Source: Micrasema longulum
Lineage: Eukaryota; Arthropoda; Insecta; Trichoptera; Brachycentridae
Assembly (NCBI GenBank): GCA_022494885.1
Contig: JAGVSM010001340.1
Span: 1-64,000, forward strand
Length of the DNA stretch: 64,000 nt
Reading direction: 5' to 3'
Shown here: positions 13,432 through 63,130 of the stretch, piece by piece
Position numbering within the stretch: position 1 is the stretch's first letter
How the letters are laid out: each line of letters begins with the position of its first letter
Program-made: the position numbers and the translations under genes
Notes under the pieces: model-generated
Told to the model about the DNA's origin: nothing
What the model saw: the letters and a program-made list of their open reading frames with translations, nothing else
Database searches by the model: none

Positions 13432-13920
13432 GATTGTTGTGTTATGTTCACTCAAACGCGGGTAAAACAAGACTGTTGAGACATTTTAAAATGTAAATAT
13501 TGTAGAAAGGTGACACATAGTGTCCTTAATTTATTAAACAAAAGAAAGAGGTATCGATAAAGGATTTCTTAGAAAAAGGGTTCAGTAAAGTCAAGGGGCG
13601 CGGTAGCAGGTAAACTCGTAATTTTTTTTTGTCTTGCGGTGTATGTTTTTAAAAAAAAAAAAAACTAGTTATCTAATGAATTTATTTATTGTGTTTTTGC
13701 GATTATTTATGAATTACGTTTATACTTGTAACAAATTTTCTAAATATTTCAACAAAAAGCATAATTTTACTGGTGTGGTATATTATTGAATAATTTAGCA
13801 TTTACCACACGTTTACAAACAAAAACTAATTACGACGCTTATAAAACAAGAAACCGTTGAAAATGTATCTATTCACTTTGTCAATGTTCGAAAGGTCGAA
13901 AACAACTCAGGCCGGAAAAA

Positions 13921-20596: not shown

Positions 20597-20829
20597 CACT
20601 CTATTGATATCCCTATTGTATTCTTCCAGCAGCCTTTATTTCAATTAAAAATAAAATGTATACCCACACAGGCCATGCCTTTGTGGGATTTTTGTGTTAA
20701 TGTATTATTTTTTTTGTATTTGTAACTAATGTATACCTATTGTAAAATGCAAAAAGAAATTATAATAAATAAAAATAAAGAATAATTTAAAAAACGTGTT
20801 TGGTTATGTGTCAATAAAAATCTATTCTT

Positions 20830-38412: not shown

Positions 38413-38766
38413 AACATAAAGCGAATACACGTAATCGGGTGGCAGGCTCAGTACTTATTCCCTTCAATTTCCCATCGTATCGTAACTTGTACATTCGCAT
38501 CTATTTCTAGTAAAGTAATAAATTATCATAAAACAAAACCTTCTCGATCTCCGTTCAAATATCCGCAAACTAGCGTAGTTTCAAACTGAATTTAACATAC
38601 TTAGGAATAAAATCACCGTGGCGAAGCTGAAATACACTTCATTCGTAATAATTATAATACAACCGAATGTGACTAACGTAAATACGTAACCGAGTGGATG
38701 TGCGCGAGGGCGGTGACAGTCGGGGTCAGCTCACGTCGGGGGAGTAGAGTAATATCGCAGTGGGTT

Positions 38767-39954: not shown

Positions 39955-40734
39955 GACGGAACGGAGGGGTGTCGCTTCGACCGTCTGACGGTTAACATGA
40001 CTGCCTCGGTTAACATGAGCGAGAGAAACGTCAAATCTGAGATTCCCGCATTATGACACGATCGAAAAATACATAGCGATGCAATTAACTTCGCGGAAGA
40101 GTTCACCGCGCACTGTACACACCGTACTCCGTAATCCGCCACCGTCAACGACAGGCGCACAGGGGACAGGGGACCTCGAAGACTTGAAGCCAATTTACGG
40201 CATTTGGCATTTATATACGCTATAATACGCTGATAAGAATAAGACACGCTAACAGTGTATTGCCATAATATAAAGAATAATTTTAATAATGTTAGTACCT
40301 ACTAGGAAGTATCATGTACCTATTGAATTATTTATGTACCTATTATAAATTGCCAATTTTACTAACAAGAATGAAGCATGTATGTAAAAATGTTTTGTTT
40401 ATACTACCTATCCTTAGAATAAAGATTTACTGAGTTATTTATTGAATGGACGTAGTTCTGACCATTTTCAGATCCCAAATAAAGTGTTTATTCCCCAGAA
40501 CTAGGTAATTAATCTACTTACTTACCGTGTCCCCTTCAAATCAATTTTCTATTTTCCTAACATTAAAATTAACATTGGAAACATTACACCGTCCATCGTA
40601 TATGTGAAACATTTATCTTTTTTTTTTTATAATCTCGATATTTAACACTTCATAAAATTAATTCAAAAAATAACAAATGGGATTGATTCATAATAACAGA
40701 AAATAGGTGTTTTGCCTTTTTTTGCTCTTTATTT
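39955..40734. other. Upstream region of GlcT, no further gene
   Basis: 39955-40250 probably contains the 5' UTR or promoter of GlcT (less AT-rich); no core promoter element can be asserted. The remainder is AT-rich. Confidence 0.4.
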
Positions 40735-41586: not shown

Positions 41587-41739
41587 ATGGATATTACCAT
41601 GAAACTGAGTGAAGTAAAAACTTTAAATGATTTAAATCGGCTAAAGGATGAAACCATTGATTCTTTACAGTTTGCAGACATCCATTTGAGTAAAAGTTTG
41701 ATGAATAATTTGCAAAACGTGTTATTTTTCGACTTCAAA
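41587..41739 (+). CDS. SYCP2-like exon 1
   Basis: Encodes residues 1-51, [19 protein letters not shown] to LFFDFK. Donor GTAAGT at 41740, phase 0. The ATG at 41560 in the same frame is an alternative start; the one at 41587 is chosen arbitrarily, as neither has a clearly better context. Confidence 0.65.
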
Positions 41740-42424
41740 GTAAGTAATGTATTTATTTTATTTTATTCTCTTTTCGGCATTGAATTTTATAAAATATTGA
41801 AAACGATGATTTTTTTTGGTTTTTAGGATGGTTTATTAAAAAAATGTAAACCTGAGTGGTCTATTCGTATCTTCCACAAAATGTTATCATCAAAAGAAAC
41901 CACAGCATTCGACGAATATGCAGATGAGATAATAGATTTGCTAAAATATGTATTTAAACAGAGTGAGGAATATTTCTCGAAAGGCTCGCAACTATGGTGG
42001 AGTTTAGTTGAGGATATAGTTCCCTTAATTACGGTAGGTGAAACAAACTTCAAACAAATTTTATTTACTTCGAATATAAACAGATGTACAGGTTAAATGG
42101 TTATAAATAAAAACTATAAAAAATGTATACATAGTAGGGCCTGCCATCCAATAATATGTATTCACTAAATTATTCTACAATAAAGCGATGAGGGTTTAAT
42201 CTATATGAAGATTTTTTTCAATATTAAAACGTAATGCCTTGTAGGAGAAGACTCGTGCTAAGGCAGACTGACTAGAAACACGCCATGGGATGTAGTAGAC
42301 TCGGTGGAAGTGGAAGCGGGAGAGAGGTGTTCGTTTGAAAGAAGACAACTGTACATATGTTTATGTATGCATCTCCATATACATACACACACACGTGTCC
42401 ACCCCTATAAACATTCATACACAT

Positions 42425-42461
<37 letters not shown>

Positions 42462-45400
42462 TTCATTCATAATTCGTTTAATCATTAAATCAAATGCAAT
42501 TTTTCACTCTCACTTTCCTTCAATCATCCTTTACCACTCCTTATCAATTTCTTTCTTTTCCTTTCCACTATCTCCTTGTTTTGTCGATATTTATCTTATT
42601 TTAGTATATAGTATATTTATTATTTATAAAGTTTAAACTTTAAGCCGTCGTCGCTTTATTACAGTATTATTTAGTGAATACATATAATTGGATGCCAGGC
42701 CCTACTATGTATACATTTTATGTAATTTTTTTTTTTAAATATTCATTTAACCTGTACATCTGTTTGTATTCGAAATAAATAAAATAAAAAATAAAATAAA
42801 ATATATTTCAATTTTATCCTTCTTGTCTTTGTATCGTATAGTATTTAAATTGTTGTGGACAATATTAATATGAATATGACTGGCCTTGTAATGTAATTTA
42901 ATAAGCTTTCAGTTTCTTTTCTTCATAACTTAATAAGCTACTGGGTTATTTTATTTTTTGTATAGTAGTTACATCGTGTTGGGTAAATAAAATATCTTTA
43001 ACCTTTTTATAAATTCTAGGAGCCATAAAGCTAAAAGATCTCTGTCCGACTCGTCTTCGGCACAATGTGTTTGTGTGACGTCACTCTACGAGTTGATATA
43101 CGAGTATTGTGCGCTGTTAAGACGTGGCCAATTTTATTATTGCGATGATGAATTATTATTGTTTTAGCATACAATTGTTCAACGTCCAAAACATTAAATT
43201 CCATAAAGAGTTGCTCCGAAGGATAGCGATATGGTTTTTTATTTATTACTCTAAGTACAGACTTTTGACACTTGACGAGAGGGTCTTGACAAGACAATGA
43301 CGCACCTCCCCATCCTAAGATACCGTACGACCATACACTTTGTGCAAGCGCAAAGTACGCGATTTTTATCAATGAGGTTTTTTGTAGAATTTTGAAAATG
43401 TATATTAATCTTCTTAATCTATTGGTTGTTTCCATTAAGTATATGATTATCCCATCTCAAAGAATCATCTAAGTTTTAATCGAGGTATTGAAAAGATTTG
43501 ATTGCCTCCAAAATAGTACAGTCGCATGTTGATGGATCAGGAGTGACATCACTGTCGGTGGATCTTTATTGTTTCTAATGACAGCTGGTTATATTATTTC
43601 GGATTTTGAATTTAATAATTTCAGTTTTTTTCTCGTTGAGAGTCAATAAGTTATAATTTAACCAGTTTTTGTACTAATCTTAATCTTTTTTCACATCTAC
43701 TATTTACTTTGTTCCACGTTTTGTCAGAAAATACAATGGCCGTATCATCTGCAAATGACACTGCTTCTTCACCATCAATGTCTATATCTAGAAGGTTTTA
43801 GTGTGTTGTTACCACCTTTATGTAGGCACCTAGTTGGTGGCCTAATTTTGTGATGTACAAAGTTATGTGGGTGCACAGAATGAGAGCAAGTAAAACAGGG
43901 TACTTACGTTTTACACAAAGATTTATTCACGAAACTAAACTACTGAAGCTAACACATTGAAAGAAGGATTCTTATAACTATATTAGGCAAAATAAAATGA
44001 AGTTGGTAAATCTAAATTGGCAGTAATTTTGTGCCTCGAAGACGCGTGCGGTGAGGTCGGAATCCGGTAGTTTTCTCCCTCGCCGGTTTGGCCCGTTCGT
44101 ACGCTCTACGTCGGCGTTCGGCAATGTTCGGCTCGTGCCGTCGTGGTCGACCCGCCACACAGCCCCCTTCCAAGTTTTGAAATCTGTTTTTCAAAACTGA
44201 CGCTGTATCACCCTCCTGCCGCTACGCGTTGTGTATGCCGGTTGTTCTGTTGGTGTTTCCGTTTCTGCTGGACTGGCTCGTTCTTCCGCTGTCTGGAACG
44301 CCGGCTTGCACCTGTCCAGCGAAACCTTTTTATGTTCGCCATCACGTCCAGTGTTACCGTCTTTTCCGCCCTGGTGATGACCTTGTAGGGCCCCTTGTAG
44401 TTCGGCATCAGGGTTTTGTACACTCTGTCGTCCCTCAGAAACAAGTGTGTGGCTCTCTTTAGTTCCGGGTGGATGAAAACGTTACCTTTATTGTGGTGCT
44501 CGACTGGCCTTGGTTTGACGTTTTGCATGAACTTTACCAGTTGCCTAGTGTAGGAGTCCGGGTCAATGTAGTCGTTCGTCTGCTCCAGGATGTCTGCTGG
44601 TAACTTTAGTTTGCACCCATACAGCATCTCTGCTACTGAGTGCTCTGCATTCGTGCGCAGTGTGGCCCTCAGTCCGAGTAGTATGGTGCTGATAGATTTT
44701 GTCCACGGAACAGGGTGGTGAGCTTTAATGGCCGTCTTCAGCGTTCTATGAAATCGCTCGATCATGCCATTACTTTGTGGATGGTAAGGCGTCGTGTTGG
44801 AGTGTGCTATGCCTGATCTGGAACAAAACAAGTTAAAATCCGTAGACATGAATTGCCTACCCTGATCAGTTATAATTTTCTCCGGTACGCCGTATCTCGC
44901 AATCCAGTTGTCCCAGATGGCTCTGATGATTGTGTGGGTCTGGATATCTGCGATAGGGATTACTTCCGCCCATCGAGTGTATCGGTCGATACATGTGAGG
45001 CAGTACCTCAGTCCCTCTGATGGTGGAAAAGGTCCGAAGAGGTCGACATGGACCACGCAGAATTTCTGTCTCGGCATGTCGATCTTGATGATCGGTGTCC
45101 TCGTGTGTTTGTTGACTTTGCTCTTCTGACAGGGTATGCAGGCCTTCGTCCAAGCTGCGCAGTCTGCTTTCATATTTTTCAGACGCCTCTTTGACTGATG
45201 GTCTTGGTCGTGGCGTCGGCTCCTGCATGGTTGAGGTTATGCACTTGGTTGAAGAAAGATCTCTGTAGCGTTTTTGGGATGTACGGTCGCATGTTGCCTT
45301 TGTTGAGATCGAAGACGATTTCTTGTCCCTGCATGTTGGTTTTGATCAGGTTCAGAGCAGTGTTCTTGTCGTCCAAGAGTGCGAGTAGTTCGTTGTCCTG

Positions 45401-48400
45401 CCTTTGTTCTTTATGGATCTTTTCAAACGATATGTTTGCCTCTTGTTCGATCATGTCGATTCTTGATAAGGTATCGGCGTCGACGTTGTCTTCTCCTTTT
45501 ATGTATTTGATGTCCGTGCTGAACTGTGAGATGTAGTCTAGATATCTGAGTTGTCTGGGGCTTTCTTTGTCGTGACTTTTCCTTCTAAACCCGAATTGTA
45601 GTGGTTTATGGTCCGTGTATATACAGAATTCTCTGCCCTCCAGATAATGTTGAAAGTACCTTACAGTCTCAAAAATGGCTAGTAGTTCCCTGTCGTACGT
45701 ACTATATGAGCACTGAGCCTTGTTCAACTTTTTTGAGAAGAAACTTATCGGTTTGTAGTTGATGCCGTCTGTGGTTTGTTGTAGCACGCCCCCGATTGCG
45801 TAATCTGAGGCGTCTGTCCCCACTGACATCTTGCTGCTTTCCTCTGGGTAGCTAAGCTTAGTGGCGTTGATCAGCGAGTTCTTGACCTCTTCGAAATCGT
45901 GTGTAGTGACTTCGTTCCACTCTACTTTTCTGTTGTCATTCTTTTGTGCTCCCTTGAGGTAATCGTGTAGTCGTATCAATTTGTGTGCTGCTCGTGGTAT
46001 GAATCTTCGGTAGAAGTTTCCCATGGCCAAGAATCTTCTCAACTGCTTAATGGTTTCTGGCTTGTTGAGGTTCGTGATGGCTTCCACTTTTGTTGGCGAG
46101 GGTCCGATGCCTTCAGCAGAAATTTCATAACCAAGAAATAACAGTGTTTTCTTGGCAAACTCGCATTTAGATGGGTTTACCACCATTCCATGATCTTGAA
46201 GTCGCTGGAACAAAGCTTTTAAGTGTTCCACATGTGTTTCTTCGTCTGGTGAAGCTATCAATATATCGTCGATATATGCGTGTACTCCTTCTAGACCTCT
46301 TGTGACTTCGTTGATGTGACGTTGGAATGTTTGTGCAGCGCATGATAGTCCGAATGGCATTCTTACAAAATCAAATAACCCGAATGGTGTGGTTATAGCT
46401 GTCTTTTTAATGTCAGTTTCATTAATTGGAATTTGGTGATATGCTCGTTGTAAGTCAATTTTGGAAAAAATTTTACAGTTAAATAAGTCATTGCATATAT
46501 CGTGGATATGTGGCAAGGAATAACGATCAGGTACCGTCTGTGCGTTTAAGCTACGGTAATCGCCACAAGGGCGATAAGTACCATCGCTCTTCTTCACCAT
46601 ATACAATGGAGAGGCCCACTCACTCTTGGAGGGTCTACAAATACCTTGAGCCACCATGTGATCGAACTCTTGCTTCGCCTGCCTCAGTAGTTCTGGGGAC
46701 AGCCGACGAGTCTTACACATAACGGGTTTGCCACGGGTATCTCTATGGTGGATTGTGTTGTGTTTATCCAGCCCTGCGTATGGTTTATTGATATCGACTA
46801 GTTGTGGATACTTCAATATGAGTGAGTGGTAAATGTTGGTTTTGTCTGTTAATGATATGGAACATGTTATGTTGTTGTTTGTGGAGATGTCAAATGCTCT
46901 GACTATCTTGCCGTTTGTATTGTCTACTAACCGTTTGTTCCTAACATCTACTAACAGGTGGAAGTTGTGGAGAAAATCTGCTCCTATAATAGGGCATGTC
47001 GTATCCGCTATTATAAACTTCCATGTAAACATTTGTTTACATCCAGATTCAGTGTTACCGTGGTAACTCCGAAATTCTGGATCGTAGTCCCGTTCGCTGC
47101 ATAGAGAATTAGCTTAGACTTTTCTCCATGGCGTTTGTGTAAAGATCTAGGAATTAATGATATTTCCGATCCGGAGTTAACGAGGTATGACACACCGGTA
47201 TCACGATCTTTAACAAAGAGACGTGTTATGTTGGTTGAATCAGCCGCCTCCGCTATGATTCGACCATCTAGTTTTTTGAAGCTAGATGCGGTTTAAATTC
47301 ACATGGTGTGACGCATTTCTTAGCTTGATCGCCAAATTTTGTGTGGAAGTAACAAAGAATAGTTTTCTTGTTATTTCCGTTGGCCCTATAGCTTGTTTTG
47401 TTGACATTGTTGTTGTATTTGTTGTTATTGAAATTGTTACTGCTGTTACTTGTTGTGTGTTTGAATCTATTGTTATTGTTGTTGTGACTATGCTGTTTGT
47501 TGATTGTGTGAAATAACTTCTCTACCTTATGGGTTAGAGCTTGTACGGACTGTTCTAAACTACAAATGTTATTTTTATTGTTGGTACCTACTACCGCTAC
47601 ATTATCCTGTGTGTACACCTGTATTAGGCGATCTGCTATCGTCGCTTGCCTATCCAGTCATCTTCGCTTATGGCTAAATGCGCTTGGATCGTCTTGGGCA
47701 GTTGTTGTATCCACAAGTATTGCAACGTCGTTTCGTCTATTTGTAAACCTATTGCTAGCGTCCGCATCTCTCTAAGTAGGCTGGATGGGTTTCGATCCCC
47801 CAGCTGTAAGGAAGAAAACAGTTTTTCTCTCCTTCTGTCCTGTGGACAGCCCATGCGTTGGATTATAGCTTCCTTCAGCCTCGTATATTTTGCTCGGTTC
47901 GGTTCCATGAGTAAAATATCTGAAACTTGTTCTATGTGCGTTTGTTCAAGTTTTGACACTAAGTGACTATAACGTGCGTCTTCTGAAACTATGTTTGCAA
48001 CTCGAATTGTGCTTCTATCTGTTTAAACCAAAGTTCGATGTTGTTCACCCATAGCTGTGGTAGTTTAACGCTAATCCTATCCGTGTGGAACATGTTGTTT
48101 GCTGTGTTGATATTTGTCAAGTCAGTGTTGTCCTTGTTAGCCATTGTTTACAGTTTAAAATATTCGTTTTTAAAAAAAAAATTCAGAAAAATGTATGTAA
48201 TAATGATTACAGTATAAGTTAACATATTGAAATAAAAGTATTCAATAATGAGTGTAGTTGTATTAAAAAGTTAAGTTTAAATTATTAGATTTAAATTTAA
48301 ATTTAAATTTCAAACAAAAATATTTATTTTTTAAATGTCAGAGTCACTATTTGTTATGTATGTACTGTGCAAGTTATAGAAAAGAAAATTAAAACAGAAA

Positions 48401-51400
48401 ATTTAAATAATTATTTTACCATACGGCGGAACACATTTTCCAACTATTAGGTATTTGTATTCTTCAAGCCTGAGTGGTCCCCTCAATATTAATATTCCTT
48501 TTGATTGTCCGTTGTACAATATATCAAGTTTAAAAATGTTTATGGTAAAACTTCAAATCTGTAACACATAATAACATGCATAGCCTAGGTTAAAAATATA
48601 AACATATATAGTACAGTCACACGATATAATGTATATAGAAAAAAGGTATGGATACTAATGTCCACGTACTAAGTTAAACATTCGTCGGCTTAGCCGCCTG
48701 AATATCTGTTTGTTTGATAGTTTCAAGTTGTTTACAAAAATAAAATTTTACAAATTGCAAGTATTGTGAACGACTGCGCCAGCTGAAAAATATTTCCGAT
48801 AGATTTCGCTGGTAAAAAAAAAACTTACTCCCGCAGTGCGTTCACAAGGAGAAAACTTTCGGATGCCTACGTCACGCTTGTCTCGCCATATAATATTTGT
48901 CAAAAATAATTATGTTCCGGTACCCTGTAAGTACCTCTACTCAATCTGGCACCCTATGTAAATGTTCGTGTGAATTGTTTGTGTGTTCGACTCAAGAAAA
49001 ATAAAAAAAAATAAAATTTATATGTGTTGTAGGAATGTATTACTCGGCGTGCGATTTTTGGTGAGCGAGTCGCTCGAACGTATTATATTATGTTTGTTTA
49101 TAATAATTTTAGTTAAATTATGAATCACCTGTTTGAATTAATCCCGGCCGAGTAATATTGTTAAGAAATTAATCACAGTTTAATCAATTCACTAGTTACA
49201 TTAATTACATTTACATTAGTTACATTTACATTGAAGATTGTTACCGACAGAAAAATTCACTCGATTCGCTCGGTCTTTGGAAAATCTAATTCTATTATAT
49301 ATTATAATTATTATAATATAATTCTATTATACTAAATTAATTAACCTTACAATAAGTTAACCTTGAAATAGATTAACCTTGATTAATTACAAATAAATTA
49401 AAAGTGCAATCAAATTAAAAATGAAATTTTAAATTTTTCATGTACCGACCGAAAAAAAGTAATTGTTGTACAATTTTGTCAAGCGAAGATATTTCTGTCT
49501 GAAATTTTGCGCAATTTTTATGGAATTTGAATGGGGTCACCGTGATTGATTGTTTAATGTTGTGTTTTCGTGTTCAAACGTCGGGGTATACCACTTTAGT
49601 GTGTTGTTACCACCTTTATGTAGGCACCTAGTTGGTGGCCTAATTTTGTGATGTACAAAGTTATGTGGGTGCACAGAATGAGAGCAAGTAAAACAGGGTA
49701 CTTACGTTTTACACAAAGATTTATTCACGAAACTAAACTACTGAAGCTAACACATTGAAAGAAGGATTCTAATAACTATATTAGGCAAAATAAAATGAAG
49801 TTGGTAAATCTAAATTGGCGGTAATTTTGTGCCTCGAAGACGCGTGCGGTGAGGTCGGAATCCGGTAGTTTTCTCTTGGTTGGTTTGGCCCGTTCGTACG
49901 CTCTACGTCGGCGTTCGGCAATGTTCGGCTCGTGCCGTCGTTGTCGACCCGCCACAAGGTCATTCAGGTATATCAAAAAGTATATATCGTGTTTTAAAAT
50001 AAAATAAATATGGACAAAACAAGGAGATAGTGGGAAGGAAGAGCAGGAAATTGATAAGGGGTGGTGAAGGATGATTGAAGGGAAGTAGGAGTGGAAAATT
50101 GCATTTGATTTAATGATTAAGAGTAAGAAAAAAGACAAAACGTCTATTTTCTGTTATTCTGAATCAAGCCTATTAGTTCTCTTCTATCATATGGAGTGTT
50201 AAATATACCGAGACTATTAAAATTCTTGTTAAATACTTTACATATACGAGGGATGGTAGAACGTTTGATGAATATGATGATCTTCTCACTGAATTTCCGA
50301 GGAAGGACTGTGAAGCCTACATTTATTTATTTATTTGACGGACTTATGCAGTCCATTCTAACGATGGTAAATACAATTTCTTATAATAAATACAGGCACA
50401 AATAAAATAAAATAAAACTAAATAAAATTGAAGCTAGGACAAAAAAAAATAAAATTACTACCTCAAGACAAGATCAGGTCTATCTTAGTGAATTTTTAAA
50501 ACTATAAAGACTTACACCAAAAAAGTCCAGATCTTGTCTCGAGTTTACAATACTACACAATCGGGATGTTGGTGCATGTAAGCCATAGTTTGTGCTGTGT
50601 TGATCGAGGAACGGCACATTATTGAATATACATTGAATACATACCCATTACACATCGATAGCGACTTCTCTATGGCTTCTCAAATTTGTGTCCTGGAAAT
50701 AAATAAACCACGCTGCCCCTCAAATTTCAGCGAAAGAGACGACATTTCTGATTTCATGTTTGCGTGTTCGGGACAGATTTTTTTTTTGCGGAATGTCCCG
50801 GAATTTTCACTGGGATAGAAGCCTTCTATAGCTATCAATATCATCATATCGATTTAGGGTCGATAGCGAACCTCCGTAATCACTTAGGAGAAGTTGCCTT
50901 CTGAGTTTTGATAGTAAGTGCTTGAGGAGAATATAAGGTGGTTCGATTTCATAGCTAACATTGAAGTCCGAGAACAGACGCAGCAGCCTCCCATAGCGGA
51001 TGCTTTGAGGGTCCGGTGGCGGACCTGGCTCGGATGCGGGCTCGGATGCCTCAGGAGCTGTGTCTTCTTCACCTTTACTTACCAAATTTGTAGGTTGTTT
51101 TTTTAATAGATTTTCCAAAAAAATTTGCTATATTGGAGGTAAAGAAAGGGAAATAGGTCGATAATTAGAAACGTTTGTTGGGTCTCAAGATTTATGTATC
51201 GGTGTTACTATACATTGTTTTTTGAATTGCGGGAAACACTCCTGACTCTAAACTTTTGTTTATATTATAAGTATCCATTGACTATGAAATAATATTCTAG
51301 TATTAAAACACCCCTTTGAATAAATATTTCATGTCAACCATGCCGGGAATCGAACCCGAGACCTTTTGGGTGGTAGGCAATCGCGCTGACCTCTACACCA

Positions 51401-54400: not shown

Positions 54401-57400
54401 CCGGACACGAGTTCCAGTCTGTCTCGCCTGAAATCAACTCCACTTCTCGTTCCATACCCGTGGAAATACTTATTGTACCGCATATATACTCCTTAACATG
54501 TATCCGGGAAGCAGTCTGTCTTTCAACTTGTAAGTAAAAGTCGGAGCACTGAAAAAAATGATCTTTTAATACCCAGGATATTTAATTTCTTTAACATGCG
54601 TTTGGAGCGCACTTTAATAGTAGCGATCGGTGTCGGGCGTTCCAGGAGTGCCGCAGCTACCTGAACGCAGGCAACGCGGCGTGGGGCGGCGTGGTGTCGC
54701 AGCTCTGCGCGCGGGCGTGGGCGGGCGCGCGGCAGCTGCGCGGCCCCCTCTGGCTGGACTGCAACCCGGGGTCGCGCTCCCTGAGCTTGCAGTGCCCCCG
54801 CGCCGCGCTGGGCCTGCGCGGGGGCTGCTGGGAGATGCTGCGTCTGCCCCTGCCGCTCCTGACATCCGTGCACTATTCCGGGTGACTATTCGCCTATTAT
54901 TATTGCTATCTGTTGTAGGCAGCCGGCCTTTGCCGGTGCGCCTATTTATGTATTATTTTATAATTTTGTTTTTTTATTAAAAATAATGTTCCTTCGCCGA
55001 TGTGTCCAGTGCCGAGGGAAACATTTTTTTTAATGTTAAAATAACAGTTTCTCTAAATTGCACGTGAAATGAAATTTCGCCTTTAACATAGATGCTGTAA
55101 AAAGTTGTAAATTTTATTTTTTTTTTAGATATTTTATCGAGAAATCTTGACAAAATAAGTATGAAATTACAAAATGATCGGTATGTACAAAATTAATAAT
55201 AACGTTTCTACCTCTTTAATAGTGTGAAAACTCGTGTTTAGAGGGTATATAATTCTGTACGAGTGATGTCACTGAACTCTTCCTAAACGGCTTAACCGAT
55301 TTAGGTGCAGTTTTCAGCGAAATGTAGATATTAAAATTTTCAATCTAATCCATTGGGTTGTCATCCAAAAGTTGGGAGCACAAATATTTTTTTCATGAAC
55401 TACCAGGGTTGCATTTGACGAGAATGCATGCACAAAAAAATTAAAGGTGTTGTTTTTTTGTGTTTAAAAAAGTTTGTTTTTGAATGTTTACAAACAACAT
55501 TCGCTTTTTATGGATCCTAATCAGATTCTTTCTTTACATTTCTTATAATTTCTTCCCATTTATTTCTTTTTACTGAATTTTTAGAAATACTTAAAAAATA
55601 TTAAATGACATTCGATACATTAAAAAAAATTGCATGTATAAATAAAGTGCACCCCTGTTAGTGAGATGAGCTGAGTTTGACATTTGCAAAAAGAATTCTA
55701 TATTTGAAAATCAATTATTTGATGTTTTGGCATTCAACCATAAACAAGTACCTAGGTGCCCTCTTAAATTCAATATTTCAATATTAATAATTTTTAGTTT
55801 TGGAATTTAATCATAAACAAGTACCTAGGTTTAAGTTTGTAAGTGAAAATTCTTGATGGAAGTTCATTGTAATTTATTATATAAATAAAACACGAGTGAT
55901 ACTTTAATCCACAAATTTGGAATATCCAGTCTCGAAGATGTCGCGAAAGCGATGAAACCGGTCACTGGATATTCCAAATTTGTGGATTAAAGTATCACTC
56001 GTGTTTTATTTACATAATAAAGTACCTAGGTACCTACTTATCAATGAAAAGTATTTTTCCAAGATAATAGCAGGCAAGCCAACGTTCGGGCAGGACAACG
56101 TCTGTCGGGTCCGCTAGTATATTATATAGTATGTATACATATATGTATTTTATTTTATTTACATGTAATTTTTTACTAACAGATTCGCTAAAATTAGTTA
56201 TTATATTCTAAAAGATATACAATGTTCCACTTCATGGAGTTCAGGATAGGGTGGGTTTTGTGTGTTTTTTAAATTTAGAATTAAATGTTTTAATATTTGT
56301 TATTGATTTTAGGATTTCTGGAAGATTATTAATGTTTTTTTTCCCAACATGTGACTAGTGATTTAAAGCTGCAGTTGTATTGCGTTTGTGTAAAGTTAAA
56401 TTATTGTTAAATCTAGAGTTTTGAGAATTTTCTAAATTAGTGGGTTTTTTTTTTCTTTGATGGTTTGTACAATAGATGCTTTTTTTAAGATGTCATCAAT
56501 TGAGTGTATATCTAGTAAGGTAAGTTTTAGGTTTTTTGGGCAATCAAAAGTGGACGTAAATTTTTCTTTTTAATTTTTTAATTATTTTTTTTATTATTTA
56601 TTCGGATAACGAACAGCTATTTTTATCTTATATACAAAGCAAAATAAATTACAAATAAGCCAATTACAGGTTTTCACAAATAGCATCACAGTAAGTTGAA
56701 AAAGATTCTCGAACATAAAATCGTCTTGTAAGCCTAGCCTATGATTTAAACATTCCAATAAAACCTCTTATTAGCTATTTGGTCTGAACCCATCTTCATT
56801 ATCCACTTCTCGATGGTAGTTTTACATATCGACAGTGGAAATGTGGCAGTTTTACAGCCGATATTATGATTTATCATTTTATTAATAAAAAAATCTCATT
56901 TATACCTTTTATTTCGGCGTAATTCCTACATAATTTAAAAAGAAATTTAAAACATGAGATTTTATTCTTATTATTATATTAATTTTCAGCGATGCGCTTA
57001 AATCTATTTTAACAAAAGTTAGTTGTTGGCGCACTTTAACTTTTCCCAACCAAATCTAGTCCATTTTTGAACCCATCGAGACTGCACATTGAGATCAGCT
57101 CTTGTGGCAGCTTATTATTTCAACACGTCAACACATCGCTTGGGAACGTTTTCCTTTCCACCCTTTTTTCTATCTGGCATATTGCTTTTCTGCGTTCTTC
57201 TTTCTTCACAAAAGTAACAAACCAGTTGACCAAAATACAATACACAACCGGGCTCGGCAATTCCCAGTCTGAACGCATACTGCCATATCACAGTAATCAT
57301 TCAGTACCTTAGAACTTTCTATCGAGTTCCCTTTAATTAATTTTGGTAATTTTTCCGGTGATACAAGTCCCGGTGCTTTTAGTGCCTAGTCTGCCGCAGC

Positions 57401-60400
57401 GGGACATCCTTTGGACCGATTGGGGGATTTTGGATATTTCCCAGTGTCCCGATATCCTCGGCGAAGGGGGACTGCTGGTTTGGTATCCGCACTCTGATGG
57501 AGGACTCGCATAGGTCTCGCACTCTCCTCGGTCCCAATTTAAAACTCACCCTGTATTCCTACACTGCCATTTGTGGAAACTAGAATAAGGCGAATGCACC
57601 GACCGTGCGTAATTGATTACAGCAGCGAGAGGTACAATGAAACCTTTTATAGTTTCTTTATTTTGTTGTTTTCACAGTTTGATTGTAGAGAAACTTTCTC
57701 TAATTTAGTTTAGTTTTAGCAATAAATTGATAGTGAATATGCAAAACTGAAGTGAATAAATTTGAATAATTCATTTTATCATATTAACCGGTTTGCCAAA
57801 ATTTATGTCATTATAGTTTTACTGTCACCCGTTACATGAAAGATTGAATGGAGGATTTAATAACAAAAGACGTCGTAGCGCCAAAATAACTCTTAAAAAT
57901 TACAAATTACTAGGTGATCCTTATAGTCTGTCTGTGGTTCAATTCATTAAAATAATTGTTTGTTTAAAACAAAATGTGATTCCATTTAGTTTACAAGACG
58001 GTTGATTAATCTTCATTTCTATCGAGCATTCTACCAAAGGCGACACGGCAGTATAAACAGATATCACGAGATAGGAGAGCAGCTGGTGTTTTCCATTCCA
58101 AACTATTTTTAGGTCTCATTTTTTAAAAATATTTTTTTTCTATAAAACAAACAATGATTTATAATAAAAATAATGTGACCTCACGCTTAACAATATAATT
58201 TATTTTAACTCGACAGTTGGTATGACATATTTTAGGTTTATTATAGAAATTTTTAAACCGTTTGAAAACCCCGAGGCTCTTTTTATAGCAACCTCGAGTT
58301 TACATCATTAGTTTTGTGCTTGCAGTATATAACATACATAGATAGAATTAAAAATATTCACGCAAATTTTTGAAACTCCTCGATAGTGAAACTTCGACAC
58401 GGGCAAGTTAGTCTTTTCAAATAAGGAAATAGACAAACAGGTTTTACATCGTTCCTTAAATAACAACACTGTGTAAGTCATTCTTGCAATTTTTGCAGGA
58501 CCGCGATCAAAACTGCTTTCTTTATTCAACTGGAGTTATACTTACTCAATAGGCGACAGTTTACGCATAAACGTTTAATTTATATGTGTTACAAGTTATA
58601 AGGCGTAATCTAGTTGAGCTTTTCCGACAAAGTGAGATATACATACACAATAACATCACCGCTGTCACTGAAGAGATGATACGACTGAGCGATATTCTTG
58701 TAAATTATTTCGCCTACTGTAAAAAAACAGGCAGCGGCTGGTGTTCGGCGGCGCCCCCCTGGAGGGCAGCAGCCCCGCGGCCCGCCGCTTGCTGAGTGCG
58801 CTCGGCCCCCGCCTGGAGCTGCTGCTGGACGGGCCCTCCCATGCCCTGCTTGCCACCCTGCGCCCTCTACTCCCGGGTAAACACCGTTCACAGATGCGTA
58901 CTAATATTTTTGCACTGTCCTTTCCTTTCGAACGGAAGTAGTATTGCCTGTAAACTTTGTACATACTGTGATATAATTGTCAATTGTTGTATTACTAACA
59001 ATCCTTTCACCGTGAACAGATTTAATGAAAGTGACTACTTTGAAATGAGCGTTAATTGAGTGGTTACAGAATTAATCTTTCGGTGACTTGCACGAAGGAC
59101 GTCGCGACGGTAGGATTAGGCGATCTTTCCAAATAATGACAAGTTGATGTTGTTTAATTTATATTAAATGCCACATTAAAAAGGTCGATAGTCGAGGAAC
59201 TTTTGATAAATTTGTAAAGAAACCGCCTGAAAGTGCTTAAACGGGCCTCAGTAATTTAGTTTTGTTTTGTTTTATTTTTTTCGAATACAGACAGATGTAC
59301 AATGTGCGGGTTAAATGAATATAAATAAAAACTATTAAAAATGTATACATAGTAGGGCCTGCCATCCAATAATACGTATTCACTAAATTATCCTACAACA
59401 AAGCGACGACGGTTTAAACTATATAAAGAATAATATGAACAAAACAAGGAGATAGTGGGAAGGAATAGAAGGAAATGGATAAGAAGTGGTGAAGGATGAT
59501 TGGAGGAAAGTAGGAGTGTACCTATTAAATGGAGTGTTTAATATGTCAAGACCATTAAAGTTCTTGTTGAATGCTTCACACATACTAAGGATGGTAGAAT
59601 GTTTCCTATGGTTAGTTTTAATATTACCAATATAGAAAATATCAGACAGTCTAGTTTCTAGTTGGTATGGAGGGGTAGCGGTAAGCAAATAGATGAATCG
59701 GTTCTGGGGAATCAAATTTATTATTTACAATTTTGTAAATCAGGATCTGATCGAAAAATCTCTTCTGTGTGTTAATAAAATCAAGGTTATGAAATTTTAA
59801 AGAAGCTATATAATTTGGAAAATGCAAAAGAAATTTGTATTTGACTTGTTTCAGGATTTTTTTTTGAACACTCTCGATTCTATTAATATTCAATTTATAA
59901 ACAGGGGACCAGATATGTATATGGATGTATTAATGTATTATTCGTAAATATTTTTTTTCAACATCCCTCCACTTTTGAACATTTGAATTTTGTACAAATT
60001 TTCAGGAATCATCAGTTAAGTGCGAAAGTCAAGGGCCTACTGTATACGCATCCTAAAGGTCATGTTAGAAAGTTTGATTACAGGATGACTATTGACATCA
60101 ATTTAGTTATATCCTGTCAAGTTATTATATGCGATTTTTAAAATGTCCAAAACGCCGTTTCCCTTTTTAAATTTGTCTTTGAATATTTGACCCATTTGAC
60201 AATTTGTATTTAATAAAGTCTTCCTTAGGTAAAATGTTTGTTTTAATTCAGAAAGTTTGGAGTTCTCCCCCGAGGATGCGGGGGAAGGGGAAAGGCTCCT
60301 CAGTGTGGCGGCCTTGCTGCGAGATGCGGGCGGCGAGGATGTCATCTTGCCCACGCCCCCCTCCGCGCCGCGCCGTAAGGTGTCGGTGGCCGCGCTGTTC

Positions 60401-63130
60401 CTGGGCGGGCCCCCGCGCCTCCCGCGCACCTCCGCCGCCCCCCCGCTGCTTCTGGAACGCTCGGGTCCGGATCTTCCGCGCCAATTCGTCAAGCAATCTG
60501 TTACAACTGAGATTTTTATTGACAATTCTGCGAGTGTAAATGGTTTGCGGAGTGCCATTTCCTGGAAATTAAATAACTCGAGACTCACGGAAGGAGATGG
60601 AAAACTTAATGATATTCCGCCTCTCATCGATAATCCGATTTCTAGTGTAATAAAATTTCCAAATAATAAAACTAAAAATGGTAATATCCAACATTCCAGC
60701 CGGGGGGATCCTAAATATCAACCGTCTCCGAAAAGATCTGCCCTCGGTTGTTCTGCTAATAAGAATAATAACCTCGGCAAAAAGAAACCGAAACTCACGG
60801 TTGTCCAGGAATTCGCGAGTCATACGAGGTGTACTAAGAACTCTATTTTGGAAAAATCCAATTGTGAAAATATCCGTGCGGGGAGGAAAAATATTACCAT
60901 CCGTAAAGGAATAAAAACAATTACAATTGCAAAAGCTATACGCTCTCGAGAGATTGAGAAAACGAATGATCCCGAACCTTGTTATATTGCCGAAACAGTT
61001 GATTTTAATACGAAGATCCAATCTCACGAGAAAGATAAAGATAAGGAACCTGTCGCTAACTGTGACTCGGCACAGGCGTCTTGTGACCTTGTGACTTCCC
61101 CTTCTGTAATTCGTGAAAAGACTGAAGATGAGTTTTTCAAAGAAAACTGTATCGCTGGTTGTCAACAGGAGATAGATCCTGATGTGATTAGAAGATTAAA
61201 TCGTTCCACTTCCGAATCTGATTTATCCGTAATGGGAGACATTATTCTCTCCTCTCTGAGAGCCGATATTGTTGGCTCTAGCCCCGTTAGGAATATCTCC
61301 ATCGGAGACAGAAACCGAACTCCCTCACCGTTAGTTACAGTAACGGCGAATAGTCCGAAGGTTGTAAAACCCTCAAAAAAATTCACTCATAATAAAAAAC
61401 TAGCTAAATACGAAAAACAGAAAATATATCAGAAAAAGATAAAAAACTTTTCGTATGAAAACTCGGTTAAAGAGTTTAATACGAAAAAATATATATTCGG
61501 AGAAAAAGACACTATCAAATCACTAAAAAAATGTAATAAGGTGACAAATAGTACGGGGTCATTGGAAGGTGCCGGCTCTCGGCGCAGAAAGTTATTCCCT
61601 ACGAAGGAGAGCAACCCCGACTTGTCCGTCTACCTGGAGCCCCCCTCGGGAGATGAGACTCCCCTCCCTCGTCCTCCGGTGTCCTACTCCTACCGCCCTC
61701 GCATGCTTCGGGCGGCGCAAGACTCGGAGCTGTTGTTCGAGCCCAAACCCGAGAACATCGAGTCTAAAAAGGTCAGAAGATCTGCTCCCTCAGAAAAGCT
61801 AGACCCGACGGTCGTGCGAGCTCTCTCGGACGAGAGAATGAGAGGCGCGCCGCAGCCGGTGGACGATCGCACCGTCTCCCGTCCCGTGCCGGATGTCGGA
61901 GGGTGTTCAGATAATGAATACAACATGCCGCTTAGTTTATTGGTTAAAACTAATATGGTACCTCCACGTTCCTCCGTTTGCACTGAATCCAAATTGAAGA
62001 CTAAAATATCGAATGCCCAAAATAGTATTTCTCTATTTAGTATGGTTAAAACGAATACGGAAAAAAGCAAAATGTCTAGAGTATTCAAAACTAAAAATAA
62101 ACCTCTAATGGTAAAAAAGAACAATAAAAGTAAAGATTATGTTATGGAGAAGTTTTTAAAGAAAGATTCAGCCCCAGAGTTGGAACATTGTTTGACTGTG
62201 GAAAAGGAACGTAGCCGACCTCGTCTCGAGGAGTCGTTCTCCAGCGTAGTATGGAAACTTGCGCAGAACTGTCCTTCCCTAGATACTAGCAACACTTCCC
62301 CGGGGAAAGAAGCTCCTCTCTCCGGTCAGATCCCCGCCGTTTCTTTCCCGGAGGAAGACACTCGTCTCCGGCTAGATCTGGAAAGTGTACTTTCCCAGAG
62401 AGATATTTTTGTTACAAAAAAAACCCTTTCAGAGGCAATTCCTAGCCCTTCGAGGTTAAATAGCCCAGAAGAAGGAGTTATACATCTGTGTGATGGTGTT
62501 AAGACAGATAGATCTCCCAATGTTGACACGTTATTGCGCACAGTTCCCTTGATGGATTGCCAGGTGGTGTTGGAGAAATGCGACATAAATGTGTCGGCTG
62601 AGACTGCCAGATATGACAGTTCATCCGATTTAACCTCTTCATCAGCTTCTTCCGTTAATATGGCGGTCCGAGAAAAAAAACGTTCCATTCCGTATGACGC
62701 AGTATCCAACGACAATTTTTCCTTACTCTTTGATTACAAAAAATACATGAGGAGTATTTCCCCGCTGATAATAGACAACGTAGAGCCCGCCGGGCCTGTG
62801 GAGGGAGAGGTCTCTTCCGCAGCGGAAGATCGTCGATCGACAGTGTCCACCGAGAGCAGCGGCGAGGGAGACGGCAGTAGGGAGCCGCCGCGCAGGAGGA
62901 GCGAGGCGCGCGGCGGAAGGCGCAAGAGGAGCTCCGAGTGCGGTACGGTATCGTCGGACCGCGTCGGTAGTGCGGATCGCTCCGTCGCGTCCTGTCTGGT
63001 AAGTAGTCGCATCGTGTGTGCAGATTTGGAGGCGGAGCTGGACGACGCGGTGACGTATTCCCGGAAAGTCACCGAGTTTCTTCTGTCCATGCAACTGAGG
63101 CAGTGGAACCGACATCGGTTCTCCGATTAG
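41587..63130 (+). CDS. SYCP2-like meiotic chromosome axis protein, seven exons
   Basis: Predicted lateral-element (axis) protein of the synaptonemal complex, acting on meiotic chromosomes. Exons: 41587-41739, 41827-42033, 53166-53344, 53431-53578, 54646-54881, 58731-58876, 60252-63130. All six introns are GT-AG, phases agree, and the sum is 1315 codons plus stop (1324 from an in-frame ATG at 41560). Exons 1-4 (residues 1-229) resemble the armadillo-like domain of SYCP2: DGLLKKC then [11 protein letters not shown] then VEDIVPLI, and [18 protein letters not shown] against the family's GDYELQ--IVEAL. Exons 5-6 (230-357) resemble the Spt16M-like domain: [20 protein letters not shown], then [13 protein letters not shown]. 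Exon 7 is a long Ser/Lys/Asp-rich disordered tail ending in a short helix ([20 protein letters not shown]). Identity rests on remembered family patterns; confirmation needs a profile search. No frame-breaking change is seen. Confidence 0.75.
41827..42033 (+). CDS. SYCP2-like exon 2
   Basis: Residues 52-120, acceptor TTTTTAG, donor GTAGGT, both phase 0. Contains [11 protein letters not shown] and [13 protein letters not shown], armadillo-like helices. An 87-bp intron precedes it and an 11.1-kb intron follows. Confidence 0.75.
42068..42210 (-). repeat. LINE 3'-UTR-type repeat E
   Basis: CATAGTAGGGCCTGCCATCC and AAAGCGATGAGGGTTTAA are the complement of repeat E. Lies just inside SYCP2-like intron 2. 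Confidence 0.65.
42428..42458. repeat. (AT)n microsatellite
   Basis: About 15 AT units followed by (ATTC)n; preceded by CA-rich sequence. Confidence 0.95.
42475..42790 (+). repeat. LINE 3'-UTR-type repeat E
   Basis: ATTAAATCAAATGCAATTTTTCAC, CCACTATCTCCTTGTTTTGTCG, GGATGCCAGGCCCTACTATG and a TTTGTATTCGAAATAAATAAA end. It points towards the jockey relic that follows. Confidence 0.65.
42930..43796 (-). pseudogene. Jockey-like LINE 3' part, cut by the Gypsy element
   Basis: On the minus strand from the Gypsy border: [20 protein letters not shown] (RT catalytic box), then [15 protein letters not shown], and after changes [33 protein letters not shown] and [20 protein letters not shown] (43031-43435). 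It ends near 42930 with an A/T tail. Its 5' continuation, FLIYLNDL, is on the other side of the Gypsy element at about 49961-49985. Several frame changes; dead. Confidence 0.8.
43797..44159 (-). repeat. Gypsy 3' LTR
   Basis: 363 bp; almost identical with 49595-49956, apart from single-base changes and a small difference near 44073-44085. Confidence 0.93.
44208..45173 (-). CDS. Gypsy integrase (open frame)
   Basis: Inserts the element's cDNA into host DNA. The 321-codon frame holds the end of the zinc-binding region (CIPCQKSK), then the catalytic core with D in HVDLFGPF, D in TDQGRQF and E in [11 protein letters not shown]; the last two are separated by exactly 35 residues (D,D-35-E). The C-terminal part ([18 protein letters not shown]) is the usual Gypsy tail domain. 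The frame is separated from the RT-RNase H frame by what looks like loss of one base near 45176, so a fused Pol could not be made from this copy. Confidence 0.92.
   Translation of the reverse strand: MKADCAAWTKACIPCQKSKVNKHTRTPIIKIDMPRQKFCVVHVDLFGPFPPSEGLRYCLTCIDRYTRWAEVIPIADIQTHTIIRAIWDNWIARYGVPEKIITDQGRQFMSTDFNLFCSRSGIAHSNTTPYHPQSNGMIERFHRTLKTAIKAHHPVPWTKSISTILLGLRATLRTNAEHSVAEMLYGCKLKLPADILEQTNDYIDPDSYTRQLVKFMQNVKPRPVEHHNKGNVFIHPELKRATHLFLRDDRVYKTLMPNYKGPYKVITRAEKTVTLDVMANIKRFRWTGASRRSRQRKNEPVQQKRKHQQNNRHTQRVAAGG
45179..47032 (-). CDS. Gypsy reverse transcriptase-RNase H (open frame)
   Basis: 617 codons. Residues about 1-60 hold the end of the protease region ([15 protein letters not shown]). 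The RT domain (about 110-300) shows [29 protein letters not shown] with the first catalytic Asp, and YIDDILIA at about 253 with the YxDD box. RNase H follows with [23 protein letters not shown] and YTDHKPL. The zinc-region start of integrase ([10 protein letters not shown]) is at the end, where a stop occurs after a one-base loss. The upstream end is shifted with respect to the protease frame near 47030. Confidence 0.93.
47011..47265 (-). pseudogene. Gypsy protease, active site altered
   Basis: The frame reads [13 protein letters not shown] where retroelement proteases have a D[ST]G triad, so the catalytic Asp is Asn here. The frame is then displaced relative to the RT frame close to 47030. 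Either change alone should abolish processing. Confidence 0.75.
47268..48144 (-). pseudogene. Gypsy gag, frameshifted
   Basis: Begins at the ATG complement at 48144 ([17 protein letters not shown], then [20 protein letters not shown]), shifts near 47990, continues in 47636-47959 ([42 protein letters not shown]), shifts again near 47630 and ends in 47268-47618 with an Asn-rich stretch and a zinc-knuckle-like [18 protein letters not shown]. This is the structural protein of Gypsy-type elements without a canonical CCHC. Confidence 0.82.
48145..49594 (-). other. Gypsy leader (5' untranslated) region
   Basis: About 1.45 kb between gag and the 5' LTR, AT-rich and without an open frame. Contains tandem TTACATTTACATTAG words near 49198-49230 and a TTATAATTATTATAA palindrome near 49308. 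The primer-binding site is at its outer end. Confidence 0.75.
49595..49956 (-). repeat. Gypsy 5' LTR
   Basis: 362 bp, minus orientation. Directly followed on the plus strand by the AGGT duplication. Confidence 0.93.
49961..50125 (-). repeat. 5' stub of the split jockey LINE, then repeat E
   Basis: The minus strand just before the Gypsy element reads FLIYLNDL, the RT segment preceding the FADDT box at 43760. Farther right, 49990-50125 is the complement of repeat E (ACAAAACAAGGAGATAGTGG, AAGGATGATTGAAGGGAAGT, AATTGCATTTGATTTAATG). The jockey copy thus was truncated at its 5' end and inserted in or beside repeat E. Confidence 0.6.
50126..50799. other. Intron DNA with LINE scraps, no gene seen
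   Basis: 50170-50330 resembles the RT C-terminal region found at 59520-59620 (GGAGTGTTAAATAT, TTCTTGTTAAATACTT), so it is a decayed LINE piece. The rest is unassigned. Confidence 0.4.
50800..51270 (-). pseudogene. Jockey-like RT fragment with an unrelated tail
   Basis: From about 51260 on the minus strand: [14 protein letters not shown], stop, [16 protein letters not shown] and FLENLLKK, the finger region of jockey RTs ([17 protein letters not shown]). The frame then goes on for about 90 codons (50807-51100) with [15 protein letters not shown] and [13 protein letters not shown], which is not RT. Probably a chance fusion after deletion. Confidence 0.5.
51298..51412 (-). repeat. SINE family A head
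   Basis: The complement shows CTCGTGGTGTAGAGGTCAGCG (A box) and GGTCTCGGGTTCGATTCCCG (B box), then ATGAAATATTTATTC and GGGGTGTTTTAATACT, the start of the body. Confidence 0.75.
51590..52390 (+). pseudogene. RTE-type LINE 3' part
   Basis: Plus strand: QISISLCR-like and [21 protein letters not shown] text, then 51834-52034 [16 protein letters not shown] and [20 protein letters not shown], later in other frames [18 protein letters not shown] and a terminal [20 protein letters not shown] segment ending with GCCACTGATGATGATG. Same family as 905-2950 but more decayed. Confidence 0.75.
52751..52990 (+). repeat. SINE family A, near full-length
   Basis: Head TCCGCCTCGTGGTGTAGTGG with B box GGGTTTGATTCCTGGG, then body GTGGTTTTACACTGCTATAT, CCTGGACTGGCACCCAAAG, GATCACCTTACCTCC, GAGTACCGATGCACCAC and a GATGATGA tail. 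This is the reference copy for the family in this window. Confidence 0.8.
53166..53344 (+). CDS. SYCP2-like exon 3
   Basis: Acceptor ATCGCAG, donor GTGAGT. Residues 121-180: [20 protein letters not shown], then [19 protein letters not shown]. Very GC-rich. Starts in phase 0, matching exon 2 although 11.1 kb away, and ends with two bases of a codon. Confidence 0.75.
53431..53578 (+). CDS. SYCP2-like exon 4
   Basis: Acceptor CTCCGCAG, donor GTAATC. Carries the most family-like segment, [18 protein letters not shown], and ends KENFDQ at a codon border that joins ECRSYLN of exon 5. An 86-bp intron precedes it. Confidence 0.8.
53808..53885 (+). repeat. Short repeat F
   Basis: TTATTATTATTATTCGTTAT, AGACAGACAGCCTTTGC, TGATGCGCCTATAT. 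A second copy is at 54889-54965 beyond exon 5. Both look like the end of a LINE or SINE tail. Confidence 0.45.
54646..54881 (+). CDS. SYCP2-like exon 5
   Basis: Acceptor GCGTTCCAG, donor GTGACT. Residues 230-308: [20 protein letters not shown], then [17 protein letters not shown] and [18 protein letters not shown]-rich. A stop follows directly in frame beyond the donor, which supports this exon end. Confidence 0.75.
54889..54965 (+). repeat. Short repeat F
   Basis: TTATTATTATTGCTATCTG, AGGCAGCCGGCCTTTGCCGG, TGCGCCTATTTATG; see 53808. Confidence 0.45.
55240..56117 (+). mobile_element. Non-autonomous Helitron copy, 5' end unsure
   Basis: The 3' end CAGGACAACGTCTGTCGGG, then CTAG at 56114-56117 followed by T, is the same as at 8601. 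AACTCTTCCTAAACGGCTTA near 55278 and CCAGGGTTGCATTTGACGAG near 55404 are Helitron-family internal words, the latter shared with 4875. No TC start can be fixed. Holds a nested hairpin at 55873-56021. Lies in SYCP2-like intron 5. Confidence 0.7.
55873..56021. repeat. Hairpin repeat nested in the Helitron
   Basis: Arms of about 58 bp (TTTATTATATAAATAAAACACG, GAGTGATACTTTAATCC, ACAAATTTGGAATATCCAGT and complement) with one mismatch and a loop of about 32 bp. Possibly a small hairpin MITE. Confidence 0.88.
56118..58730. other. Remainder of SYCP2-like intron 5
   Basis: AT-rich. At about 57050-57110 the minus strand reads [20 protein letters not shown], which fits the end of a LINE RT C-terminus, so 56580-57420 may be a decayed minus-strand LINE. 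No other gene seen. Confidence 0.4.
58731..58876 (+). CDS. SYCP2-like exon 6
   Basis: Acceptor AAAAAAACAG, donor GTAAAC. Residues 309-356: [20 protein letters not shown] then [20 protein letters not shown]. An alternative AG four bases downstream gives the wrong frame. GC-rich. Confidence 0.72.
59283..59535 (-). repeat. LINE 3'-UTR-type repeat E
   Basis: CATAGTAGGGCCTGCCATCC, AAAGCGACGACGGTTTAAAC and ACAAAACAAGGAGATAGTGG (complement of repeat E), directly 3' of the RT fragment that follows on the same strand. Confidence 0.65.
59536..59940 (-). pseudogene. LINE RT C-terminus attached to repeat E
   Basis: Minus-strand frames 59651-59893 ([40 protein letters not shown]) and 59419-59715 ([20 protein letters not shown], then [16 protein letters not shown]) give the known end of jockey-type RT proteins. 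A frame change lies between them. Lies in SYCP2-like intron 6. Confidence 0.75.
60252..63130 (+). CDS. SYCP2-like exon 7 (terminal)
   Basis: Acceptor TTTTAATTCAG, phase-matched to exon 6. 958 residues, uninterrupted: [18 protein letters not shown] at the start, GC-rich for about 230 bp, then a long polar tail with many Ser, Lys, Asn and Asp residues, basic patches (RRRKLF, KKPKLT) and near the end [18 protein letters not shown]. It ends with a short amphipathic helix [18 protein letters not shown] and stop TAG at 63128. In the family such a tail ends in a coiled coil that pairs with SYCP3; only a short one is visible here. Confidence 0.85.

What the first reader, a model, noticed from the sequence alone, without database searches (positions are those of the whole stretch)
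41587..63130. A hidden seven-exon SYCP2-like meiotic axis gene in an insect
Seven separated open pieces join with GT-AG borders and matching phases (0,0,2,0,2,1) into 1315 codons. The N-terminal part follows the armadillo-like plus Spt16M-like layout of SYCP2, with [30 protein letters not shown] and [13 protein letters not shown] as landmarks. Axis proteins evolve fast and insect counterparts are poorly known; lepidopteran females are achiasmatic, which makes the lateral element of this group of special interest. Splice joins and frames are seen in the sequence; the family link is from memory of SYCP2, and the role is inferred.
Basis: partly seen in the sequence, partly recalled or inferred. 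Interest (0 to 1): 0.9.

Follow-up and report, generated by a model that had tools for sequence, protein, structure and literature searches.

The report
Divergent SYCP2 meiotic axis gene
The stretch holds a real, hard-to-recognise gene that looks like SYCP2, a protein that helps build the chromosome axis in meiosis; such genes are already known from the silkworm, so this is a new and very divergent member rather than a new kind of thing.

Summary
The seven-exon join is in the DNA as described: six GT-AG introns, phases 0,0,2,0,2,1, 1315 codons plus stop. The family call, made from memory, holds up. Searches with the joined protein in Pfam, PDB sequences and 5.8 billion proteins gave no convincing match. 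But mouse SYCP2 searched against the whole window ranks exon 5 first and exon 4 second. The joined N-terminus aligns co-linearly with mouse SYCP2, score 84, 28% identity over 251 pairs; shuffles average 33, its reversal scores 53, and 0 of 3000 alternative splice chains reach 70. Weak points: exon 3, the rest of the Spt16M-like domain and the published closure motif are not significant alone; a conserved stretch overlaps only the motif's end. The SYCP3-binding coiled coil was not found in the model or downstream, so the 3' end is incomplete or the coiled coil is reduced. The host group was not tested. SYCP2-3 family members in Lepidoptera and Diptera, and Bombyx SYCP2, are in print. New member of a known kind.

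The parts
41587..41739 (+). exon 1 (51 codons), start of armadillo-repeat-like domain; alternative in-frame ATG at 41560
   Evidence: exons 1-2 against mouse SYCP2 1-280 score 51, 6 of 1000 shuffles as high
41827..42033 (+). exon 2 (69 codons), armadillo-repeat-like domain
53166..53344 (+). exon 3, armadillo-repeat-like domain; GC 0.73
   Evidence: alone not significant against mouse (172 of 1000 shuffles as high)
53431..53578 (+). exon 4, carries the GDYGLQ landmark (mouse GDYELQ)
   Evidence: second-best tblastn match of mouse SYCP2 in the window (53378-53500, E 0.72)
54646..54881 (+). exon 5, end of the helical part and start of the Spt16M/PH-like domain ([28 protein letters not shown])
   Evidence: best tblastn match of mouse SYCP2 in the window (54613-54786, E 0.012); hhalign P 6.5e-4
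58731..58876 (+). exon 6, rest of the Spt16M/PH-like domain by position (weak acceptor)
   Evidence: residues 278-357 alone not significant against mouse (83 of 1000)
60252..63130 (+). exon 7 (958 complete codons, then stop): conserved stretch after the domain, then a long tail in which no coiled coil was recognised
60296..60352 (+). stretch [19 protein letters not shown] after the folded domain, at the place of the mouse closure motif
   Evidence: best local match [13 protein letters not shown] to mouse 411-423 (1 of 300 shuffles; 1 of 1000); overlaps only the end of the published motif 395-414, and against 395-414 alone it is not significant (240 of 1000); the SVA match rests on MAFFT with a gap
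42034..53165 (+). intron 2, 11,132 nt, holds a Gypsy-like retroelement on the minus strand (about 44.2-48.0 kb)
   Evidence: reverse transcriptase, RNase H, integrase, DUF7041
63000..63024 (+). donor-like GTAAGT and acceptor-like TGTGTGCAG, 25 nt in all, inside the last exon; possible alternative exon end

Best explanation
It is the SYCP2 orthologue (meiotic chromosome axis core protein, Red1/SYCP2/ASY3 kind) of this animal. Shown by computation: an N-terminal region co-linear with the armadillo-like domain and the start of the Spt16M/PH-like domain of mouse SYCP2, then a conserved stretch at the place of the closure motif, then a long tail. Inferred from the family: the N-terminal domain anchors the protein on cohesin-based axes; a closure motif just after it is captured by the HORMA safety belt of the animal's HOP1/HORMAD and so loads it on axes; a C-terminal helix joins SYCP3 (if present) to extend the axis filament on which SYCP1 builds the synaptonemal complex. 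The C-terminal coiled coil was not found and may lie in exons missed by the model.
For: Whole-window tblastn with mouse SYCP2 1-425 (composition correction and masking off): exon 5 first (E 0.012), exon 4 second (0.72), next matches 1.2; exon-5 and exon-4 frames rank 1 and 2 (66, 49; third 47) of 708 ORF segments. Smith-Waterman 84 against shuffle mean 33.5, s.d. 4.4, 0 of 500; exons 4-6 alone 69 against 28, 0 of 500; 71 of 251 aligned pairs identical. Splice-chain control 0 of 3000 at 70 or more. hhalign P 6.5e-4, probability 27%, against at most 0.9% in 60 shuffles, 0.2% reversed and 0.4% for a piece of exon 7. MAFFT puts GDYxLQ, CRxxLN, WxDxNxGSxxLS and WExxxxP in register and runs across the exon 4-5 join. 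Whole Spt16M-like part 1 of 1000 shuffles; stretch after the domain 1 of 1000.
Against: No Pfam hit at E<=10. PDB phmmer gives only four weak cytidylate kinase rows. None at E<=10 among 7993 and 225 scored candidates. A mammal-only HMM lists just the 435-residue N-terminus, 2.5 bits, E 52, out of 303 sequences; the full-length model was not listed. blastp against mouse: no hit. The reversed sequence scores 53, itself above all 500 of its shuffles, so shuffles understate the null. Exon 3 alone (172 of 1000), the far Spt16M-like part (83 of 1000) and the published closure motif alone (240 of 1000) are not significant. The coiled coil is not found. Exon 5 folded alone is low confidence and shows no SYCP2 in the 50 PDB rows listed.
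Confidence: 0.87

Rival explanations
1. SYCP2 orthologue as above, but the protein has truly lost or shortened the C-terminal coiled coil, so its axis is not held by a canonical SYCP2:SYCP3 tetramer.
For: No similarity of the last 200 residues to the mouse coiled coil (score 27 against shuffle mean 31). No coiled-coil exon recognised in the 4.2 kb to the next gene, a minus-strand histone-fold frame. The last 42 codons look coding and GC falls from 0.49 to 0.27 around the stop.
Against: Bombyx SYCP2 keeps the coiled coil. A good donor-like site at 63000 could lead to unrecognised exons. AT-rich fast-evolving exons are easily missed. One peptide from a Bombyx C-terminal primer has its second-best match of 103 kb, both strands, in this very gap (LGYSLYSAHE at 65966, 27 of a possible 56; the best, 34, lies elsewhere), which is weak but not excluded. 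The heptad score is home-made, and its top value in the gap (0.50, a hydrophobic stretch at 63495) exceeds that of the model's own terminal helix (0.38). No transcript evidence.
Confidence: 0.2
2. Two genes fused in the model: exons 1-2 belong elsewhere, or the SYCP2 gene has other exons in the 11 kb intron.
For: Exons 1-2 are AT-rich (0.29, 0.34) and 11 kb away from GC-rich exons 3-6; exon 3 alone is not significant.
Against: Exons 1-2 score 51 against mouse (6 of 1000 shuffles as high), residues 1-180 score 56 (1 of 500), in order and in phase with the rest.
Confidence: 0.1
3. Not a gene, or an unrelated protein; the SYCP2 likeness is chance.
For: No convincing hit in Pfam, PDB sequences or the protein database.
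Confidence: 0.03

Closest known systems
Bombyx mori SYCP2 (XP_037874109.1, 1800 aa; PMC10151401)
   Same: As described there: SYCP2 domain of armadillo repeat + pleckstrin homology, closure motif just downstream, not found by plain blastp with mammalian SYCP2 but by an iterative search
   Different: Longer (1800 against 1315 aa) and has a predicted C-terminal coiled coil; the letters of that protein could not be compared here, apart from two primer peptides
Mouse SYCP2 (1500 aa, N-terminal structure PDB 5IWZ)
   Same: Co-linear N-terminal region, landmark residues, conserved stretch at the closure-motif place; 28% identity over 251 aligned pairs
   Different: Best alignment starts at mouse residue 37 and ends at 316; several short gaps; coiled coil not found
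Red1 / ASY3 axis core proteins
   Same: Same kind of layout in the literature (PMC6349405 passages)
   Different: No sequence comparison made here

Membership tests
SYCP2 | Armadillo-repeat-like N-terminal domain (Pfam PF18581) | tested here: inconclusive
   hmmscan no hit at E<=10; six-frame family search of the genome no hit, but its controls also rang nowhere; direct alignment to mouse: exons 1-2 6 of 1000 shuffles, exon 3 172 of 1000, residues 1-180 1 of 500; exon 4 is the second-best window match
SYCP2 | Spt16M/PH-like domain (Pfam PF18584) | tested here: inconclusive
   exon 5 is the best match to mouse in the window, mouse 249-316, E 0.012, hhalign P 6.5e-4; this covers the stretch before and the first part of the domain (278-389). 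Model 260-357 against mouse 278-394: 1 of 1000 shuffles; the far part alone 83 of 1000. The Pfam model did not hit
SYCP2 | HORMAD closure motif directly after the domain | tested here: inconclusive
   conserved stretch matches mouse 411-423 (1 of 300; 1 of 1000 for 395-424), but against the published motif 395-414 alone 240 of 1000 shuffles do as well; binding untested
SYCP2 | C-terminal coiled coil that binds SYCP3 | tested here: inconclusive
   not recognised in the model nor, by mouse and macaque tblastn, in the rest of the contig to its end; 3' end of the gene uncertain
SYCP2 | Overall co-linear similarity to a proven SYCP2 above chance | tested here: met
   score 84, 0 of 500 shuffles, reversal 53; 0 of 3000 splice chains at 70 or more; exons 5 and 4 rank 1 and 2 in the window
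SYCP2 | Domain fold as in 5IWZ | not testable with these tools
SYCP2 | Localises to meiotic axes / lateral elements | not testable with these tools
   needs cytology

The most novel reading that the evidence does not exclude
This lineage carries an SYCP2 that keeps the chromosome-anchoring and HORMAD-loading half but has lost the SYCP3-binding coiled coil, so its axis must be held together without the canonical SYCP2:SYCP3 filament.
Probability: 0.15. Interest if true: 0.6.

Novelty: new member of a known kind. Interest (0 to 1): 0.35.

Why it matters
It shows that a SYCP2 gene not recognised by Pfam or by large sequence searches can be recovered from raw DNA by splice logic plus a handful of landmark residues, and it gives another, very divergent sequence for comparing how this axis protein evolves. 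If the coiled coil is really absent, it would bear on how much of the axis filament is dispensable.

Tried and rejected
Pfam hmmscan, phmmer on PDB sequences, two protein-database searches with the joined model, blastp and a mammal-only HMM: negative or too weak by themselves. Exon 5 was folded alone and searched against PDB: low confidence, no match at E<=0.001. Coiled-coil search downstream with mouse and macaque C-termini, with peptides translated from the Bombyx primers printed in PMC10151401, and with a simple heptad score: nothing convincing. The best mouse hit (contig about 92.3-92.5 kb, minus strand, E 0.052, 0.027) runs through stops on the wrong strand; the second (contig about 109.7-109.9 kb, +, E 0.12) looks by eye like a retroelement reverse transcriptase. 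Near-coincidence of intron 6 with the mouse intron before residue 395 was noted but not counted: one such agreement is not improbable and mouse phases are unknown. Idea rejected: a retroelement origin of the exons (the Gypsy-like frames are on the other strand, inside intron 2). The host group and the presence of SYCP3, HOP1 and SYCP1 in the genome could not be tested because the genome search answered only once.

Full report
What was checked. With the borders set at 41587-41739, 41827-42033, 53166-53344, 53431-53578, 54646-54881, 58731-58876 and 60252-63130 the join is 3948 nt, 1315 codons and a stop, with AG/GT at all six introns and phases 0,0,2,0,2,1. Exons 3 to 6 have GC 0.70-0.77; GC is 0.34-0.46 upstream of exon 3, downstream of exon 4 and on both sides of exons 5 and 6, while the short intron between exons 3 and 4 is itself GC-rich (0.75-0.76). 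Exons 1-2 are AT-rich (0.29, 0.34; flanks 0.20-0.26). Two acceptors are weak. An in-frame ATG at 41560 could lengthen the protein by nine residues.

Database look-ups with the joined protein fail. Pfam at E<=10 gives no family for the first 435 residues, phmmer on PDB sequences gives only four weak cytidylate kinase rows, and two searches of 5.8 billion proteins gave none at E<=10 among 7993 and 225 scored candidates. The six-frame search of the own genome with PF18581 had no match, but its controls also rang nowhere.

Direct comparison with mouse SYCP2 succeeds. Full-length mouse SYCP2 then came from the protein database as P0092. Searching mouse residues 1-425 against the entire window, both strands (masking and composition correction off), the best hit is exon 5 (54613-54786, E 0.012), the second exon 4 (53378-53500, E 0.72), and the next ones (E 1.2) lie elsewhere. 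By local alignment against all 708 ORF segments the exon-5 and exon-4 frames rank first (66) and second (49), the third scoring 47.

The joined N-terminal 435 residues score 84 against mouse 1-400, 500 shuffles average 33.5 (s.d. 4.4, none as high); exons 4-6 alone score 69 (none of 500 as high); residues 1-180 score 56 (1 of 500). The best alignment joins model 2-276 to mouse 37-316 with 71 identities in 251 aligned pairs (28%). Controls: the reversed sequence scores 53, itself above all 500 of its shuffles, so shuffles understate the null; a piece of exon 7 scores 45 (41 of 500 as high). Random five-exon GT-AG chains from the + strand that avoid exons 3-5 never reached 70 in 3000 (maximum 66), and minus-strand chains never in 1500 (maximum 63). 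With exons 3-5 left in the pool 2 of 1500 plus-strand chains reached 84; those chains were not inspected. hhalign of the single sequence against 20 mammals gives P 6.5e-4 and probability 27%, over residues 222-277, against at most 0.9% in 60 shuffles. A plain mammal HMM lists only the 435-residue N-terminus, 2.5 bits, E 52, out of 303 sequences, and not the full-length model; blastp gave no hit.

Piece by piece the support is uneven: exons 1-2 6 of 1000 shuffles as good, exon 3 172 of 1000, the whole Spt16M-like part 1 of 1000, its far part (model 278-357) 83 of 1000. In the MAFFT alignment the conserved points fall in order: GDYGLQ with [17 protein letters not shown] across the exon 4-5 join with [24 protein letters not shown] with FWIDFNLGSHTLS; WEMLRLP with WEAVTVP; then [17 protein letters not shown] with SVAKTSIHVLFDASGSQILVP. 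The last lies where the mouse closure motif lies: mouse residues 395-414 bind HORMAD2 directly after the ordered domain (PMC6349405, passages; PMC13396342, passages). The significant part is [13 protein letters not shown] with mouse 411-423 (1 of 300; 1 of 1000 for 395-424), which overlaps only the end of the motif; against 395-414 alone 240 of 1000 shuffles do as well. The window's stretch is at 60296-60352. A closure motif is therefore plausible, not shown.

What is missing. The C-terminal coiled coil, which binds SYCP3 in mouse (construct 1325-1500) and is predicted in Bombyx (PMC10151401 section 16), was not recognised in the model nor in the contig DNA downstream. The next gene, a minus-strand histone-fold frame (by eye NF-YC), begins about 4.2 kb on. 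A donor-like GTAAGT at 63000 sits in the last exon, while the codons after it still look coding. One Bombyx primer peptide has a weak match at 65966 in that gap. Either unseen exons remain or the coiled coil is reduced. This cannot be decided without transcripts.

Most likely working. By the family's known biology (mouse, PMC5498334 passages; PMC6349405 passages; Bombyx, PMC10151401 passages) the N-terminal domain pair would anchor the protein on the meiotic axis, the closure motif would load HOP1/HORMAD, and the C-terminus would join SYCP3 into the filament. In Bombyx SYCP2 interacts with HOP1 and, as an N-terminally shortened form, with SYCP3 (yeast two-hybrid), and persists on chromosomes to metaphase I in males (PMC12956816 passages). 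All of this is inference for the present gene.

Novelty. Divergent SYCP2-3 family orthologues in Lepidoptera and Diptera were reported in 2021, with none found in Drosophilidae (PMC8131943 passages), and the silkworm protein was characterised in 2023. Hence a new and very divergent member of a known kind.

Noticed in passing
38767-40050 (-): Single long frame with Glyco_transf_21 (Pfam E 2e-55), by eye a ceramide glucosyltransferase; GC 0.73 in the island 38702-39905 in an AT-rich window.
   Followed up: partly
44208-48022 (-): Gypsy-like LTR retroelement frames (DUF7041, reverse transcriptase, RNase H, integrase) inside intron 2 of the SYCP2 gene.
   Followed up: partly
12631-13485 (-): Tc/mariner-type transposase frame (HTH_Tnp_Tc3_2).
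   Followed up: no
9671-10366 (+) and 20818-21642 (+): Reverse transcriptase frames (RVT_1), by eye of non-LTR type.
   Followed up: no
51335-51407 (-): tRNA-like match (Rfam 32.9 bits, threshold 29), perhaps part of a SINE.
   Followed up: no
about 42080-42210 and 59290-59420 (+): Two similar stretches of about 120 bases, one in intron 2 and one in intron 6, seen by eye; probably a dispersed repeat end.
   Followed up: no
L001:4317-5078 (-): Histone-fold protein (Pfam Histone and CBFD_NFYB_HMF), by eye NF-YC: the next gene downstream.
   Followed up: partly
L003:2178-2519 (+): PHD-finger exon (Pfam E 3.7e-13), by eye of the DPF/requiem kind.
   Followed up: no
60296-60430 (+): The string SVAAL(L/F) occurs twice, 27 residues apart, after the folded domain ([11 protein letters not shown] and [11 protein letters not shown]); a possible second copy of the conserved stretch.
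   Followed up: no
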